DNA from: Acidiphilium multivorum AIU301
GTDB lineage: Bacteria > Pseudomonadota > Alphaproteobacteria > Acetobacterales > Acetobacteraceae
Direction: 5' to 3'
Length of the DNA: 64,000 nt
NCBI RefSeq assembly: GCF_000202835.1
Contig: NC_015178.1
Span: 1 to 64,000, forward strand
Under the pieces are notes generated by a model. It was given only the letters and a program-made list of their open reading frames with translations. It was not told the origin of the DNA and searched no databases. Positions within the stretch are counted from its first letter, which is position 1. Each line of letters opens with the position of its first letter. This document shows positions 7,022-34,614 of this stretch, piece after piece. Made by a program: the position numbers and the translations under genes.

Positions 7022-7086
7022 TGGGCGGATCCTTCGTCGGTTGCGCGAGATATAGAGAGCCGCCCGACAGCGCGCAATTTTATGGA

Positions 7087-7329
7087 ATGGCCCGCCCCTT
7101 CCCCCTTGTAGAGTAATCTGCTGGGGGCCAACGGAAGAAAGGGAGGCAGGCAATGAAGACAGAGATCGCGGTTTTAGGGATTGATCTGGGCAAGAACAGC
7201 TGCAGCCTTGCGGGACTGGATGGGACTGGTGCGGTGATCAAACGGCGGCGGATGCGACCGGAGACCGTGGTGACGTTCACGAAGGAGTTGCCGCCTTGCG
7301 TGATAGCGATGGAGGCGTGCTGGGCCCGT
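7087..7329 (+). pseudogene. 5' fragment of an IS1111/IS110-group element
   Basis: The segment starts with the subterminal sequence ATGGCCCGCCCC also found at both ends of the complete IS1111-group element near 31.1-32.5 kb. The transposase ORF begins at 7153 ([19 protein letters not shown], the first acidic motif of the DEDD domain). It stops making sense after AMEACWA, where the IS1634 end begins. Only about 59 transposase residues remain. Confidence 0.78.
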
Positions 7330-21379: not shown

Positions 21380-21787
21380 GTGAGGCAATACGATTCTCAC
21401 GCTGATTGTCGCGCGGCAGTCGGGCCAATTACCTCGATTACCATGGCCCTGTCTGCGGTAAACCCGGCAAATTTCGAGAGTGGCCGCCACTTCGCTGCGT
21501 GGCTGGGACTGACGCCACGAGAACATTCGACAGGTGGAAAACATCGCCTTGGCCGGATCAGCAATGCGGGCAATGAGCGGTTGCGTTAGTTACTGGTCGT
21601 CGGCGCGATGGGGGTGTTTCGATACGCCAAGCCGGGCAGCAAATCAGCAAATACCTGGCTGTTGCAATTGCAGGAGCGCCGGCCGCGCAAGATCGCGGTG
21701 ATCGCTCTGGCCAACAAGATCGCCCGGATCATCTGGGCGATGATGGCGCGCGGCGAGGCATACCGGCGGCAGCCGGCAGCAGCCTGA
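21380..21787 (+). pseudogene. IS110-family transposase C-terminal fragment
   Basis: The frame reads GPITSITMALSAVNPANFES, WLGLTPREHSTGGKHRLG and NAGNERLR, then an in-frame stop. It continues YAKPGSKSANTWLLQLQ and VIALANKIARIIWAMMARGE to a natural end. It is the Ser-containing C-terminal domain of an IS110-group transposase different from the 31-kb element. The N-terminal half is missing. Confidence 0.78.
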
Positions 21788-22065
21788 CCGCGGCCGGTGC
21801 CAGGGAGGCAAGAGCGACAGAAGAAGATGGTGATTGGTCGAACCGACGAATGGCGGCAATCCAGCGGGGGTCAACGGCAGGTCGATGCCGCAGATTTGTT
21901 TGGATGCCATTCGCGGAACCCATCTGGGCTGGCGGTCATGAGGCCGCGCCAAAAAGCCGGACACATGACCGCATTCGTGCCGCCGCCAAATTCTCGCACC
22001 GTCGATCTTGAATCCCGGGCCGTTCCACACATGACCCCCTCGATTGAGAGGAGGGACAGATGGCG

Positions 22066-22518
22066 AGCGGCGCTGCCTTATCTTGTCGAACGCGATACGC
22101 CGTTGGGCCGCTGGGCGCGGGGATTGCTCGACCGAGCGCATAAGAACGTGGGCGTAGTCGCGCTGGCCGCGAAGCTGGCTCGGATCGCATGGGCTGTTTT
22201 GGCGCACGGTTGCGATTACGGCGCCCAATTCGAAGCGGCGGCTGCGGCAGCATGACGGAATCGCCCGAACAGCGCTCGCAGTTGGGCGCGAAAGGGCAGT
22301 CGATGTCTGCGTGAGGTGAAAGGAAGATGGCCTGACAGTCGAATGGCGGCTTGAAACCCTGACCCATTGAACGGCCTCCGAGGCCGGTGTGATTATAAGG
22401 ATCAGGCCGCGCGGATCTCCATCTTGGCCGGGTTCGAAGCCCGAGACCGGATACGTTGAAGCAGACTGATTAGAGCCAGATGAAATTCACCCCTTGCGGA
22501 CGGGGCGGGCCATACGTT
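22066..22518 (+). pseudogene. 3' fragment of the IS1111-group element (repeat of 32044-32497)
   Basis: This stretch of about 453 bp is nearly identical to the last part of the complete element at 31.1-32.5 kb. It holds the last 60-odd transposase codons (ALPYLVERDTPLGRWARG to the Ala-rich end), then the 3' non-coding segment including TGTGATTAT at 22388-22396 and the terminal GGGGCGGGCCAT. About a dozen substitutions separate the copies. Confidence 0.88.
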
Positions 22519-28568: not shown

Positions 28569-29239
<671 letters not shown>

Positions 29240-30344: not shown

Positions 30345-31193
30345 AGCTTCCCGATGTATTGGCTCGCCAGTAATGAACGCCGCAAAGCGGGGGCAATTGG
30401 GTTCGACTGCACCCGCGCCCGATATCGCCGCGATTATTCCCCGCCAGGCAAAGTTTGGAGTAGTTCATGGGGCCGGCGATGACCACAAAAACGGAGCCTT
30501 CGGGATTTGCTGGGTCACCTCTCTGACACGATCGTTCATGCAGCCCGGACGCACGCGCTACTGGCGTATGGTCTCGCCTTCGTGCTGACCGCGGCGGAAG
30601 CGTTTCCCGTCATCGGCGCGCTGGTACCTGGAACCGCCATTATTGTCGGATTGGGCGCTCTCGTGCCGACGGGTGCCCTGCATTTCTGGCCTCTGGTGGC
30701 CTGGTCCACGGGAGGCGCCATCCTGGGCGACGGGCTGCCCTTCTGGTTTGGCTCCCGGTTCCGGAACCAGGCGACAGGGCTCTGGCCACTGAGCCTGCAT
30801 CCGGATCTGCTGCCGCGAGGCAAGGCATTCTTCGAGCGCCATGGCGGGTCCGCCGTCATCATCGCACGCTTCACGCCAGGCGTGCGGGCCGTTGTGCCCA
30901 TTGTGGCCGGAGTCAGCGGGATGCGTTCGCTCCGCTTTTATGTGCTCGACGTCGTTTCAGCGGTCATCTGGGCGCCCGCGCATGTCGGCGCCGGGGTTCT
31001 CGTTGGCGCCTCGTTGGCCATTCTGGGCGTCATGGCAGGCAGGCTCGAGGCCCTGCTCATCGGCTTGATCGTCAGCCTCGTGCTCCTGCTCTGGCTGGTT
31101 CCACGGCTTCTCCGCTTTGTGATTATGGGATGGCCCGCCCCTCTCGCGGCGATCGGGTAGTATCGCCGCTGGTTTGGAGAGAGGAGCAGACCG

Positions 31194-32234
31194 ATGGATA
31201 TCGTGATTGTCGGCATCGATCTTGGCAAGAACTCTTGCAGCGTGGTGGGCATGGACGCCGCCGGCCGGGTTGTTTTGAGGCGGAGACTTCGGCGGGGAAC
31301 GTTGGAAAGTTTCGTTGGCGAGCTTGGGTCGTGCATTGTGGCAATGGAAGCATGTTGCGGCGCTCATCACCTCGGGCGGATTTTCGCCGCGCGGGGCCAC
31401 GAGGTGCGGCTGATGTCGCCGGAATATGTCCGTCCGTACGTGAAGGCGCAGAAGAACGATGATCTCGACGCGGAGGCGATCGCAGAGGCTGCGACGCGGC
31501 CAACGATGCGTTTCGTGCCGGTGAAGAGCCAGGACCAATCTGATCTCCAGGCTTTGCACCGAGCCCGGGAGCGCCTGGTCTCGGAACGGACGGCGCTGAT
31601 CAATCACTTGCGGGCGTTGCTGCTGGAGCGAGGGATCGTCGTTCCGCAAGGCCGGAGGAAACTGGAAGCCGAGCTTGAGACATTGGCCGAAGATGGCGGT
31701 TTTGCCGCGTTGAGCCCGCGCATCCGGACGTTGATCGAAGATCTTCGGGCGGAATGGCGTTCACTCGACCAGAGGATCACCGGCTTCGACGCCGAGTTCG
31801 TTCAGTTGGCTCGTGACGACGTGGCTGTGCGACGTTTGACCAAAATCCCAGGAATGGGAACGATAAACGCTACGGCGCTGGCGGCGGCGGTCGGCGAGGC
31901 GCAGGCATTCAAACGTGGGCGGGACATGGCGGCGTGGCTGGGGCTCGTTCCACGGCAAATGACAACGGGTGGAAAACCGCGCCTGCTCGGCATCAGCAAA
32001 CGCGGCAATCGTTATTTGCGGAAGAACTTGATCCATGGCGCACGAGCGGCGCTGCCTTATCTTGTCGAACGCGATACACCGTTGGGCCGCTGGGCGCGGG
32101 GATTGCTCGATCGAGCGCATAAGAACGTGGTCGTAGTCGCGCTGGCCGCGAAGCTGGCTCGGATCGCATGGGCCGTTTTGGCGCACGGTTGCGATTACGA
32201 CGCCCAATTCGAAGCGGCGGCTGCGGCCGCATGA
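31194..32234 (+). CDS. IS1111-group DEDD transposase/recombinase
   Basis: The 346-residue protein has an N-terminal RuvC-like DEDD domain ([25 protein letters not shown] and QKNDDLDAEAIAEA). The C-terminal Transposase_20 domain (IPGMGTINATALAAAVG, AWLGLVPRQMTTGGKPRLLG) carries the catalytic Ser region (LLGISKRGNRYLR). GGAG lies eight bases before the ATG. It is full length. Such recombinases use an element-encoded guide RNA to choose target and donor. Confidence 0.94.
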   Translation: MDIVIVGIDLGKNSCSVVGMDAAGRVVLRRRLRRGTLESFVGELGSCIVAMEACCGAHHLGRIFAARGHEVRLMSPEYVRPYVKAQKNDDLDAEAIAEAATRPTMRFVPVKSQDQSDLQALHRARERLVSERTALINHLRALLLERGIVVPQGRRKLEAELETLAEDGGFAALSPRIRTLIEDLRAEWRSLDQRITGFDAEFVQLARDDVAVRRLTKIPGMGTINATALAAAVGEAQAFKRGRDMAAWLGLVPRQMTTGGKPRLLGISKRGNRYLRKNLIHGARAALPYLVERDTPLGRWARGLLDRAHKNVVVVALAAKLARIAWAVLAHGCDYDAQFEAAAAAA

Positions 32235-32480
32235 CGGAATCGCCCGAACAGCGCTCATAGTTGGGCGCGAAAGGGCAGTCGATGTCTGCGTGAGGTGAAA
32301 GGAAGATGGCCTGACAGTCGAACGGCGGCTTGAAAACCTGACCCAGTGAACGGCCTCCGAGGCCGGTGTGATTATGAGGATCAGGCCGCGCGGATCTCCA
32401 TCTTGGCCGGGTTCGAAGCCCGAGACCGGATACGTTGAAGCAGACTGATTAGAGCCAGATGAAAATCACCCCTTGCGGAC
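32235..32480 (+). ncRNA. Candidate bridge/seek RNA region of the IS1111 element
   Basis: IS1111-group elements encode their guide RNA downstream of the transposase, and this is the only long non-coding part of the element. It is conserved in the 22-kb partial copy. It contains GTGATTATG at 32368-32376, the same nine bases that form the left tip of the element (31119-31127), as expected of a donor-recognition segment. Short self-complementary stretches such as GGCCTCCGAGGCC occur just before it. RNA ends cannot be set from sequence alone. Confidence 0.42.
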
Positions 32481-33936
32481 GGGGCGGGCCATACGTTAGC
32501 TGGTTGGAAAGCAAGCGCGGGCCAGCGCTTGCCTGGGCCCACGCCGGCAAAGGCAGGATCCGCAGTAATGTGGCTTCCATCCTCGATCCGGCACGGGCGG
32601 AACTGTCCGGCCTGATCACCCTCGCCGGGGCTCTTGCGGGCAGCCTCTGGCTTTTGCTCGGCGTTCTGCAGGATCTGATCGCCGGAGATCCGCTGGTTTA
32701 TGCCGATCACGCGATCCTGCATTTCCTTGAGCCCTATCGAAGCGGCATACCGATGGAAGCGGCGATGGCATTCTCTCGGCTTGGCAGCGGCGCGGTCACG
32801 GTTGCTGTCGCAGCGGTCGTGCTCGTCTGGCTCGACCGGCAGAGCGCGTGGCGTGGTGCGGCCTATGGTATTGCCGCTGTGATTGGTGCCTCCCTGTTCA
32901 CCGCGGGGCTCGATCTTGCCCTGCATCGCGCGCCACCGTCGCCGATTGCGCCCGGCTGGAGCCTTATTCCGTTTCCCGGCGGCGATCTTGCAACCTCATG
33001 CGCGGTTTATGGCATCCTGACCGTCATCGCCGGCCGACGGCTCGGCGCGCGCCCACGTATTGGGCTGATCACGGCGACGGTCCTTTTCGCTGCACTGCAG
33101 CTCGGCAGTCGGGTCTATCTCGGGCTGGACTGGTTTTCATCCGAACTGGCTGCGCTGGGCTTCGGGTTCGCGTGGGCTGCCGGTCTCGGCCTCGCCTATG
33201 TTGCGCGTCCGGTCGAACCCGTGGCACCCTGGCGCCTCGTCGCCATTACGGCGGCTACGCTCGCCACCGCCGGTACGGCGGCGGTCGCCCTAAATCGCAA
33301 TGCCGATCTGGCGCGCCATGACGTGGGGCGCATGAGCACGACGATGACGTGCCCTGACTGGCTTCAACACGGCTGGCAAAACCTGCCAACACGCAGCCTC
33401 GGCATGCTCGGCAGTTTTTCCGGCTCACTGACGATCCAGTGGATTGGCCCGGCCGACGGGCTTCGGCACGCTCTCGCCCAGCTCGGCTGGCGCTCGTCCG
33501 CGCCCTGGACATTTCGCAATGCTCTTGAATTTCTAGCCCCGCACGCAAGCCCAGCCGAGATCCCGGCGCTGCCGCGCTGGGATGACGGCCGACGCGCAGA
33601 CCTGATAATGGTTTTCGTCGGACACGGCCTTGCCGCCGATCAACGGCTGGTGCTGCGCCTCTGGAAGACGAGTGTATCTGTAACCATGCCGACAGGATCG
33701 GTACGGACGCTCAGGATAGGGGAGATCGAGATGCAGAGGCTGCGAAGGATGGTCTCAACCCTGACAATCCCTGTCTCGGAAGGTTCCGCTTATACCGTCC
33801 TGCCTCGAATCGCGGCGGCATTACCTGCCTCGCGGCTGGTGACGCGTGCCGCCGATGGCGCCACCGTCCTGCTCGCCGGTGATCGTGCCGTGGATACGGA
33901 GGGATGCCTGACGCAGCACCGAGGGGACGGTGCGCA

Positions 33937-34614
33937 ATGAGGGTTCTTATCGTCGAGGACGAGGCGAAGACCGCAGCCTATCTCCGAAAGGGTCTCGAAG
34001 AGAACGGCTTCACGACGGATGTGGCTACTGATGGAGAGACGGGGCTCCAATTCGCCCGCCACGGCGGCTACGATGCCATTATCCTCGACATCATGCTGCC
34101 ACGGCGCGACGGCTTCGAAATCCTCGCCGAAATCCGGCGGCGCGACAGCCATACCGCCGTGCTTCTACTCACCGCGCGGGACCAGGTGACAGATCGCGTC
34201 GCCGGGCTGGAGGCCGGGGCCGACGATTACCTCGTCAAGCCCTTCGCGTTTTCCGAGCTGCTTGCCCGTGTGCGCACCATCCTGCGGCGAGGGCACGCGC
34301 GGCAACCGGCGCTGATCCAGATCGCCGATCTCGAGATTGACCTCTCGGGACACCGGGCAACGCGAGCGGGTCAGGCGCTCGATCTGACGCCGAAGGAGTT
34401 CCGCCTGCTTTCGTTGTTGGCCCGCCGCGCGGGCGATGTCATCTCGCGAACGGTCATTGCCGAACAGGTCTGGGACATCAATTTCGATTCTGGCACGAAC
34501 GTCGTCGACGTCCACATGTACCGCCTCCGCGCCAAGCTGGACGACCCGTTCTCCCGCCGCCTGATCCACACCGTTCGTGGTGTGGGTTACGTGCTCGAAG
34601 ACCGTGGCGGCTGA
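33937..34614 (+). CDS. OmpR-family response regulator (heavy-metal type)
   Basis: The 225-residue protein has a complete receiver (VLIVEDEAKTAAYLRKGLEE, phosphoacceptor Asp in AIILDIMLPRRDG, Lys in YLVKPFAFSELLARV) and a C-terminal winged helix (LDLTPKEFRLLSLLARRAGD, VDVHMYRLRAKLDDPF, RGVGYVLED). It resembles CusR/CopR/IrlR regulators. Its ATG overlaps the stop of the DedA-PAP2 fusion, and its stop overlaps a GTG start for the kinase. It probably activates the RND genes downstream in response to metal. Confidence 0.95.
   Translation: MRVLIVEDEAKTAAYLRKGLEENGFTTDVATDGETGLQFARHGGYDAIILDIMLPRRDGFEILAEIRRRDSHTAVLLLTARDQVTDRVAGLEAGADDYLVKPFAFSELLARVRTILRRGHARQPALIQIADLEIDLSGHRATRAGQALDLTPKEFRLLSLLARRAGDVISRTVIAEQVWDINFDSGTNVVDVHMYRLRAKLDDPFSRRLIHTVRGVGYVLEDRGG

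What the first reader, a model, noticed from the sequence alone, without database searches (positions are those of the whole stretch)
31119..32497. IS1111 element whose 3' non-coding region repeats its own left tip: likely guide RNA
The left tip GTGATTATG recurs inside the 260-bp 3' non-coding region (32368-32376) and, apart from its last base, in the partial copy at 22388-22396. In IS110/IS1111 elements a guide RNA pairs with donor and target ends. A copy of the donor end inside the expected RNA region is what such a guide would need. The subterminal repeats ATGGCCCGCCCC confirm the IS1111 group.
Basis: partly seen in the sequence, partly recalled or inferred. Interest (0 to 1): 0.62.

Follow-up and report, generated by a model that had tools for sequence, protein, structure and literature searches.

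The report
IS1111 jumping gene with guide RNA

Summary
The repeat is real: TGTGATTATG (10 nt) occurs at 31118-31127 and 32367-32376. But TGTGA at 31118-31122 is target DNA, not the element's tip. Removing the element as TTATGGG...ACG (31123-32495, 1373 bp) restores an open DedA-PAP2 frame that aligns without gaps to an empty paralogue in the same genome. Among 74 relatives, the RNA segment matching 32367-32371 copies each element's own left flank (mean 4.5/5, against 1.6/5 for other elements' flanks). A segment just upstream is the reverse complement of its own right flank (4.9/6 against 3.1/6). Neither was reached in 10,000 permutations. These are the two target guides, in the order published for IS1111 seekRNAs. 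They sit in a conserved stem-loop with strong pair covariation. The true copy of a donor end lies elsewhere: ATACGTT at 32430-32436 repeats the right end. In distant relatives the equivalent 7-mer changes with the right end (27 of 32 exact; never exact for a different 7-mer). So the guide-RNA idea is right, the assignment of the repeat is wrong, and the system is a new member of a published kind (seekRNA/bridge RNA). No transcript or movement was tested.

The parts
31123..32495 (+). IS1111-family insertion sequence (1373 bp), inserted in a DedA-PAP2 gene
   Evidence: 7/3-bp extensions beyond 12-bp inverted repeats; 12 full copies in the genome; empty-site join restores a 613-codon open frame
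31118..31122 (+). Left target flank TGTGA (host DNA, formerly called part of the left tip)
   Evidence: empty paralogue reads CTCCGC-CTCGCGATC-AACTGG at the same place; copy L002 differs from the window copy only here, TGTAA
31123..31129 (+). Left terminal extension TTATGGG (TT = core shared with target)
   Evidence: conserved in relatives
31130..31141 (+). Left subterminal inverted repeat ATGGCCCGCCCC
31194..32234 (+). Transposase, 346 aa, DEDD RuvC + Transposase_20, with GLVPRQMTTG motif
   Evidence: Pfam PF01548 and PF02371; NCBIfam NF033542 'IS110 family RNA-guided transposase'; motif position
32290..32480 (+). Predicted guide RNA (seekRNA/bridge RNA) region
   Evidence: covariance model R1, 181 bits (this copy is a training sequence); pair covariation
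32303..32309 (+). Outer stem, 5' arm (AAGATGG), pairs with 32398-32404 (CCATCTT)
   Evidence: helix 1, 97.5% of cells paired
32322..32333 (+). Guide-loop stem, 5' arm, pairs with 32381-32393
   Evidence: helix 2: 9 of 12 pairs with changes on both sides
32343..32350 (+). Right target guide CCAGTGAA, complementary to the top strand of TT + right flank
   Evidence: own flank 4.90/6 against 3.05/6 for others, n=40, 0 of 10000 permutations
32351..32365 (+). Hairpin between the two guides (CGGCC-TCCGA-GGCCG)
   Evidence: helix 4, 99.5% paired; closing pair changed on both sides in 25 of 40
32367..32373 (+). Left target guide TGTGA + core TT, identical to the top strand of the left flank
   Evidence: own flank 4.47/5 against 1.64/5, n=40, 0 of 10000 permutations; per-position covariation
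32374..32376 (+). Guide tail ATG, identical to bases 3-5 of the element's left end
   Evidence: TTATG in nearly all relatives; in distant relatives the first tail base follows base 3 of the left end (TGA/TGT/TGC) in most elements listed
32430..32436 (+). Donor guide ATACGTT, identical to the right end (32491-32497)
   Evidence: equivalent 7-mer exact in 27 of 32 non-redundant distant elements, never exact for a different 7-mer; compensatory ATACATT in L041, whose right end is ACA
32440..32443 (+). Short 3' helix, 5' arm GCAG, pairs with 32473-32476 (TTGC)
   Evidence: helix 5, 99.4% paired but little variation
32481..32492 (+). Right subterminal inverted repeat GGGGCGGGCCAT
32493..32495 (+). 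Right terminal extension ACG
   Evidence: conserved in relatives
32496..32503 (+). Right target flank TTAGCTGG (host DNA; TT core)
   Evidence: matches the empty paralogue TCAACTGG; guide predicts TTCACTGG, 6 of 8 matched
30507..31122 (+). 5' part of the interrupted DedA-PAP2 gene
32496..33940 (+). 3' part of the interrupted DedA-PAP2 gene
22064..22518 (+). 3' fragment of a second copy, holding a second guide RNA (22311-22501)
   Evidence: 97% identity; 172 bits
28589..28743 (+). 5' fragment of another copy, also preceded by TGTGA
   Evidence: 93% identity; sequence

Best explanation
It is an IS1111-family insertion sequence whose 3' non-coding region is transcribed into a guide RNA of the seekRNA/bridge RNA kind. 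In one stem-loop the RNA holds two target guides: CCAGTGAA, which pairs with the top strand right of the cut, and TGTGATT, which pairs with the bottom strand left of it. The two overlap on the TT core. The reported repeat is the second guide plus core plus three bases of the element's left end, so it can pair across the whole left junction of an inserted copy. A further segment, ATACGTT, matches the right end and is the likely donor guide. The transposase-RNA complex would excise the element as a circle by recognising its ends together with the flanking target, and insert it at TGTGA^TT(C...) sites. Shown here: element ends, target origin of TGTGA, conserved RNA structure, covariation of the target guides with own flanks, covariation of the donor guide with the right end. 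Inferred: transcription, processing, binding to the transposase and the strand reactions.
For: Twelve full copies; seven distinct sites listed in G000, with left flank TGTGA at six and TGTAA at one. Empty-site joins restore open frames across the junction in three genes, and an empty paralogue aligns without gaps. Guide-flank covariation: left 4.47/5 own against 1.64/5 other, right 4.90/6 against 3.05/6, no permutation of 10000 reaching them; 120 close pairs with different guides match their own flanks 8.1/10 and swapped flanks 3.0/10. RNA structure: 96.2% of cells paired against 32-42% when slid; 113 cells with double changes against 33.5 shuffled. Donor guide: 27 of 32 exact. Base 32343 of the guide is C, G or T in near-identical copies and target base +8 is its complement at seven of eight distinct sites. 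A pACRY01 copy with 98.8% identical transposase has guide CGTGA and flank CGTGA. Positive control: IS4321 and IS5075 carry copies of their right end and right-flank complement in the same layout and match the RNA model at E about 1e-15. Published mechanism: PMC11187229, PMC11208160.
Against: No transcript data, and no promoter was established. The right guide fits the window's own site only in part (4 of 6 beyond the core). No right donor guide (complement of the left end) was found by covariation. Permutations ignore tree structure, so their extremity overstates independence; the swapped-pair test among close relatives lessens this but its pairs share members.
Confidence: 0.92

Rival explanations
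1. One reading: GTGATTATG is the element's own left tip and its copy in the RNA is a donor guide.
For: The copy does extend three bases (ATG) into the element, and in distant relatives the first base after the core follows the left end.
Against: TGTGA lies outside the element: empty paralogue and restored frames. The copied bases vary with the insertion site in relatives. The donor-end copy is ATACGTT elsewhere.
Confidence: 0.04
2. The repeats are DNA-level binding sites for the transposase rather than parts of an RNA guide.
For: The donor-end copy lies near the right end and could in principle be a DNA site; no RNA was measured here.
Against: The segments sit in a structure with compensatory changes typical of RNA. 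One copies a strand and the other complements it, as guide pairing requires. Related elements have RNA co-purified with the transposase (PMC11187229).
Confidence: 0.03
3. The match between RNA and flanks is chance or common descent, with no guide function.
For: Relatives share ancestry and some share flanks such as CCCCC.
Against: Close relatives (non-guide identity at least 80%) with different guides match their own flanks and not each other's. One-base guide changes in near-identical copies are mirrored in the target.
Confidence: 0.01

Closest known systems
IS1111-family seekRNA elements (ISEc11, ISKpn4, ISPa11, ISPst6; Siddiquee et al. 2024, PMC11187229)
   Same: Subterminal inverted repeats with 7-bp left and 3-bp right extensions, 3' non-coding region, top-strand complement located 5' of the bottom-strand match, overlapping matches in the target, no target duplication, natural re-direction between relatives
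   Different: Different target (TGTGA^TTC) and host group. A donor-end copy (ATACGTT) is identified here; the parts of that paper read here describe target matches only. Expression not tested here
IS4321 and IS5075 (IS1111 family, target Tn21-family ends)
   Same: Same RNA layout: right-end copy ATAGATTC 48 nt before the right repeat and right-flank complement AAAACGGAA at -144; RNA model match 59 bits
   Different: About 38-40% transposase identity; different target and core context
IS621 bridge RNA (IS110 group; PMC11208160)
   Same: RNA with target guides and donor guides sharing a core dinucleotide; related C-terminal transposase domain
   Different: In IS621 the RNA is at the left end and the inverted repeats are only 2-3 bp; the order of the target matches is reversed in the IS110-group element tested in PMC11187229; here the RNA is at the right end and no right donor guide was found

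Membership tests
IS1111 family | DEDD (RuvC) transposase with C-terminal Transposase_20 domain and GL-P----S/TG motif | tested here: met
   PF01548 and PF02371; GLVPRQMTTG at residue 250; NF033542
IS1111 family | Subterminal inverted repeats of about 11-13 bp | tested here: met
   12 bp, perfect
IS1111 family | 7-bp left and 3-bp right terminal extensions, no target duplication | tested here: met
   TTATGGG and ACG; empty-site comparisons
IS1111 family | Long non-coding region downstream of the transposase gene | tested here: met
   246 bp, 32235-32480
[quoted passage not shown]
   32343-32350 then 32367-32373; covariation
seekRNA | RNA transcribed, 70-100 nt peak form, bound to the transposase and essential for movement | not testable with these tools
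   needs RNA sequencing and transposition assays
bridge RNA | Left donor guide matching the donor end and core | tested here: met
   ATACGTT at 32430-32436; family-wide covariation
bridge RNA | Right donor guide complementary to the other donor side | tested here: inconclusive
   no covariation signal found
IS1111 family | Circular intermediate with junction promoter | not testable with these tools
   no promoter established

The most novel reading that the evidence does not exclude
Across the IS1111 family, one fixed RNA layout would serve every step: a target-guide loop whose left guide runs on through the core into the element's own left end, and a separate copy of the right end about 50-60 nt before the right repeat. 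The same RNA would then read both junctions of an inserted copy (for excision) and both the empty target and the circle (for insertion). Evolution would retarget the element by changing only the loop, base by base.
Probability: 0.45. Interest if true: 0.5.

Novelty: new member of a known kind. Interest (0 to 1): 0.36.

Why it matters
It corrects which part of the element is which: the repeat is an address for the target, so the element's ends, its target rule (TGTGA^TT) and the donor-end copy can all be read from sequence. The family set gives a simple rule for predicting targets of unstudied IS1111 elements, and shows retargeting by single-base guide changes in near-identical copies. It also makes the role of the donor-end copy in IS1111 RNAs directly testable.

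Tried and rejected
Rfam search of the region gave nothing. A right donor guide (complement of TTATGGG) was sought by covariation anchored on the donor guide; no consistent diagonal. A junction promoter was considered by eye (TTGCGG at the right end with TTATGG at the junction) but not tested, so no claim is made. A per-column test of the right guide first gave two overlapping registers, because one group of elements has an extra base between guide and hairpin; a register-free score replaced it. One Pfam call on the target genes failed on a frame error and was replaced by reading frames across the joins; the gene names at the insertion sites, DedA-PAP2 included, rest on sequence reading, not on a family search.

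Full report
What is in the sequence. The reported repeat is exact and one base longer than stated: TGTGATTATG at 31118-31127 and 32367-32376. The subterminal repeats ATGGCCCGCCCC are at 31130-31141 and 32481-32492. The transposase (31194-32234) has the DEDD and Transposase_20 domains, the GLVPRQMTTG motif, and meets the NCBIfam model named IS110 family RNA-guided transposase. The genome holds 12 full copies, two fragments inside the window and two copies of a 69% relative.

Where the element ends. A paralogous DedA-PAP2 gene on another contig is empty and reads CTCCGC-CTCGCGATC-AACTGG where the window reads CTCCGC-TTTGTGA^TT-AGCTGG once the element is taken out. Taking out TTATGGG...ACG (31123-32495) leaves a 613-codon open stretch across the join; the same cut restores open frames at two other copies (L002, L006). 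This agrees with the 7-bp and 3-bp extensions published for IS1111 (PMC11187229). Copy L002 differs from the window copy at one base of the 1380 compared, in this stretch: TGTAA instead of TGTGA. So TGTGA belongs to the target, and TT is the shared core.

What the repeat is. Relatives were collected; 74 elements, including two from this genome, had both ends placed. In the aligned non-coding regions, positions 32367-32371 copy each element's own left flank, position by position (78-98% identity against about 30-50% expected). Over 40 non-redundant elements the own-flank score is 4.47/5 against 1.64/5 for other flanks; the upstream segment ending at 32350 is the reverse complement of TT plus the own right flank, 4.90/6 against 3.05/6. 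None of 10000 permutations reached either value. Because permutations ignore ancestry, close relatives with different guides were also compared: 120 pairs match their own flanks 8.1 times in 10 and swapped flanks 3.0 in 10. The order, top-strand complement first, is that of published IS1111 seekRNAs.

Retargeting at single-base scale. Among near-identical elements, guide base 32343 is C, G or T, and target base +8 is its complement at seven of eight distinct sites. In plasmid pACRY01 of Acidiphilium cryptum, one copy has guide TGTGA and flank TGTGA, and another, with a 98.8% identical transposase, has guide CGTGA and flank CGTGA.

RNA structure. In 40 aligned sequences, 30 predicted pairs are formed in 96.2% of cells; slid versions reach 32-42%. 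Double changes number 113 cells against 33.5 after shuffling. The guides lie in the loop closed by 32337-32338/32378-32379 and the long stem 32322-32333/32381-32393, on either side of the hairpin 32351-32365. A covariance model finds the RNA at 32290-32480 (a training sequence) and in the fragment at 22311-22501, and in most of the distant elements tested, including IS4321 and IS5075.

The donor-end copy. ATACGTT at 32430-32436 repeats the right end ATACG plus TT. It hardly varies in close relatives; the one element whose right end is ACA (L041) has ATACATT in the RNA. In distant relatives (37-47% identity), the equivalent 7-mer is exact in 27 of 32 non-redundant elements and never exact for a different 7-mer. 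It lies about 50-59 nt before the right repeat. IS4321 and IS5075 obey the same rule. Donor-binding nucleotides in IS1111 RNAs were already predicted by others (PMC11208160), so this is support, not discovery. A right donor guide was not found.

Why the repeat runs into the element. The left guide continues through TT into ATG, the start of the element. In distant relatives the first base after the core follows base 3 of the left end in most of the elements listed (my count from that listing is 25 of 28). The guide can therefore pair across the whole left junction of an inserted copy, in keeping with the published need for intact target flanks during excision.

Verdict. A guide-RNA IS1111 element, new as an individual member, ordinary in kind. 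Expression and movement remain untested.

Noticed in passing
window 21400-22033: 3' remnant of a different IS1111 element (GTGG-type repeats, core TG) with its own RNA (21811-21984, 36 bits) and donor copy ACACATG repeated at its right end; the fragment of the present element follows directly.
   Followed up: partly
window 7080-7300: Left end of another IS1111 relative (TTTTATGG-AATGGCCCGCCCC) with the start of a transposase gene; no RNA hit follows it within the window.
   Followed up: no
L003, L004, L008, L010, L011, L012, L009 flanks: Most copies in the genome sit just upstream of what read like transposase genes of other insertion sequences (IS1634-like and IS5-like by eye), so the target guide seems to exploit other repeated elements.
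   Followed up: partly
L006 and L002 flanks: Two copies interrupt genes that read like an M32 carboxypeptidase and an MgtC-type membrane protein; not checked by a family search.
   Followed up: partly
L033-L036 (Sphingobium lactosutens): Four copies with guide TTCCC sit at flanks TCCCC, CTCCC, TTCCC and TTCCC, showing tolerance at the outer guide positions.
   Followed up: no
window 28589-28743: 5' fragment of the present element with an altered left repeat (ATGGCTGGCTCACCCC), also preceded by TGTGA; its 3' part may be the fragment at 22064-22518, which would imply a rearrangement.
   Followed up: no
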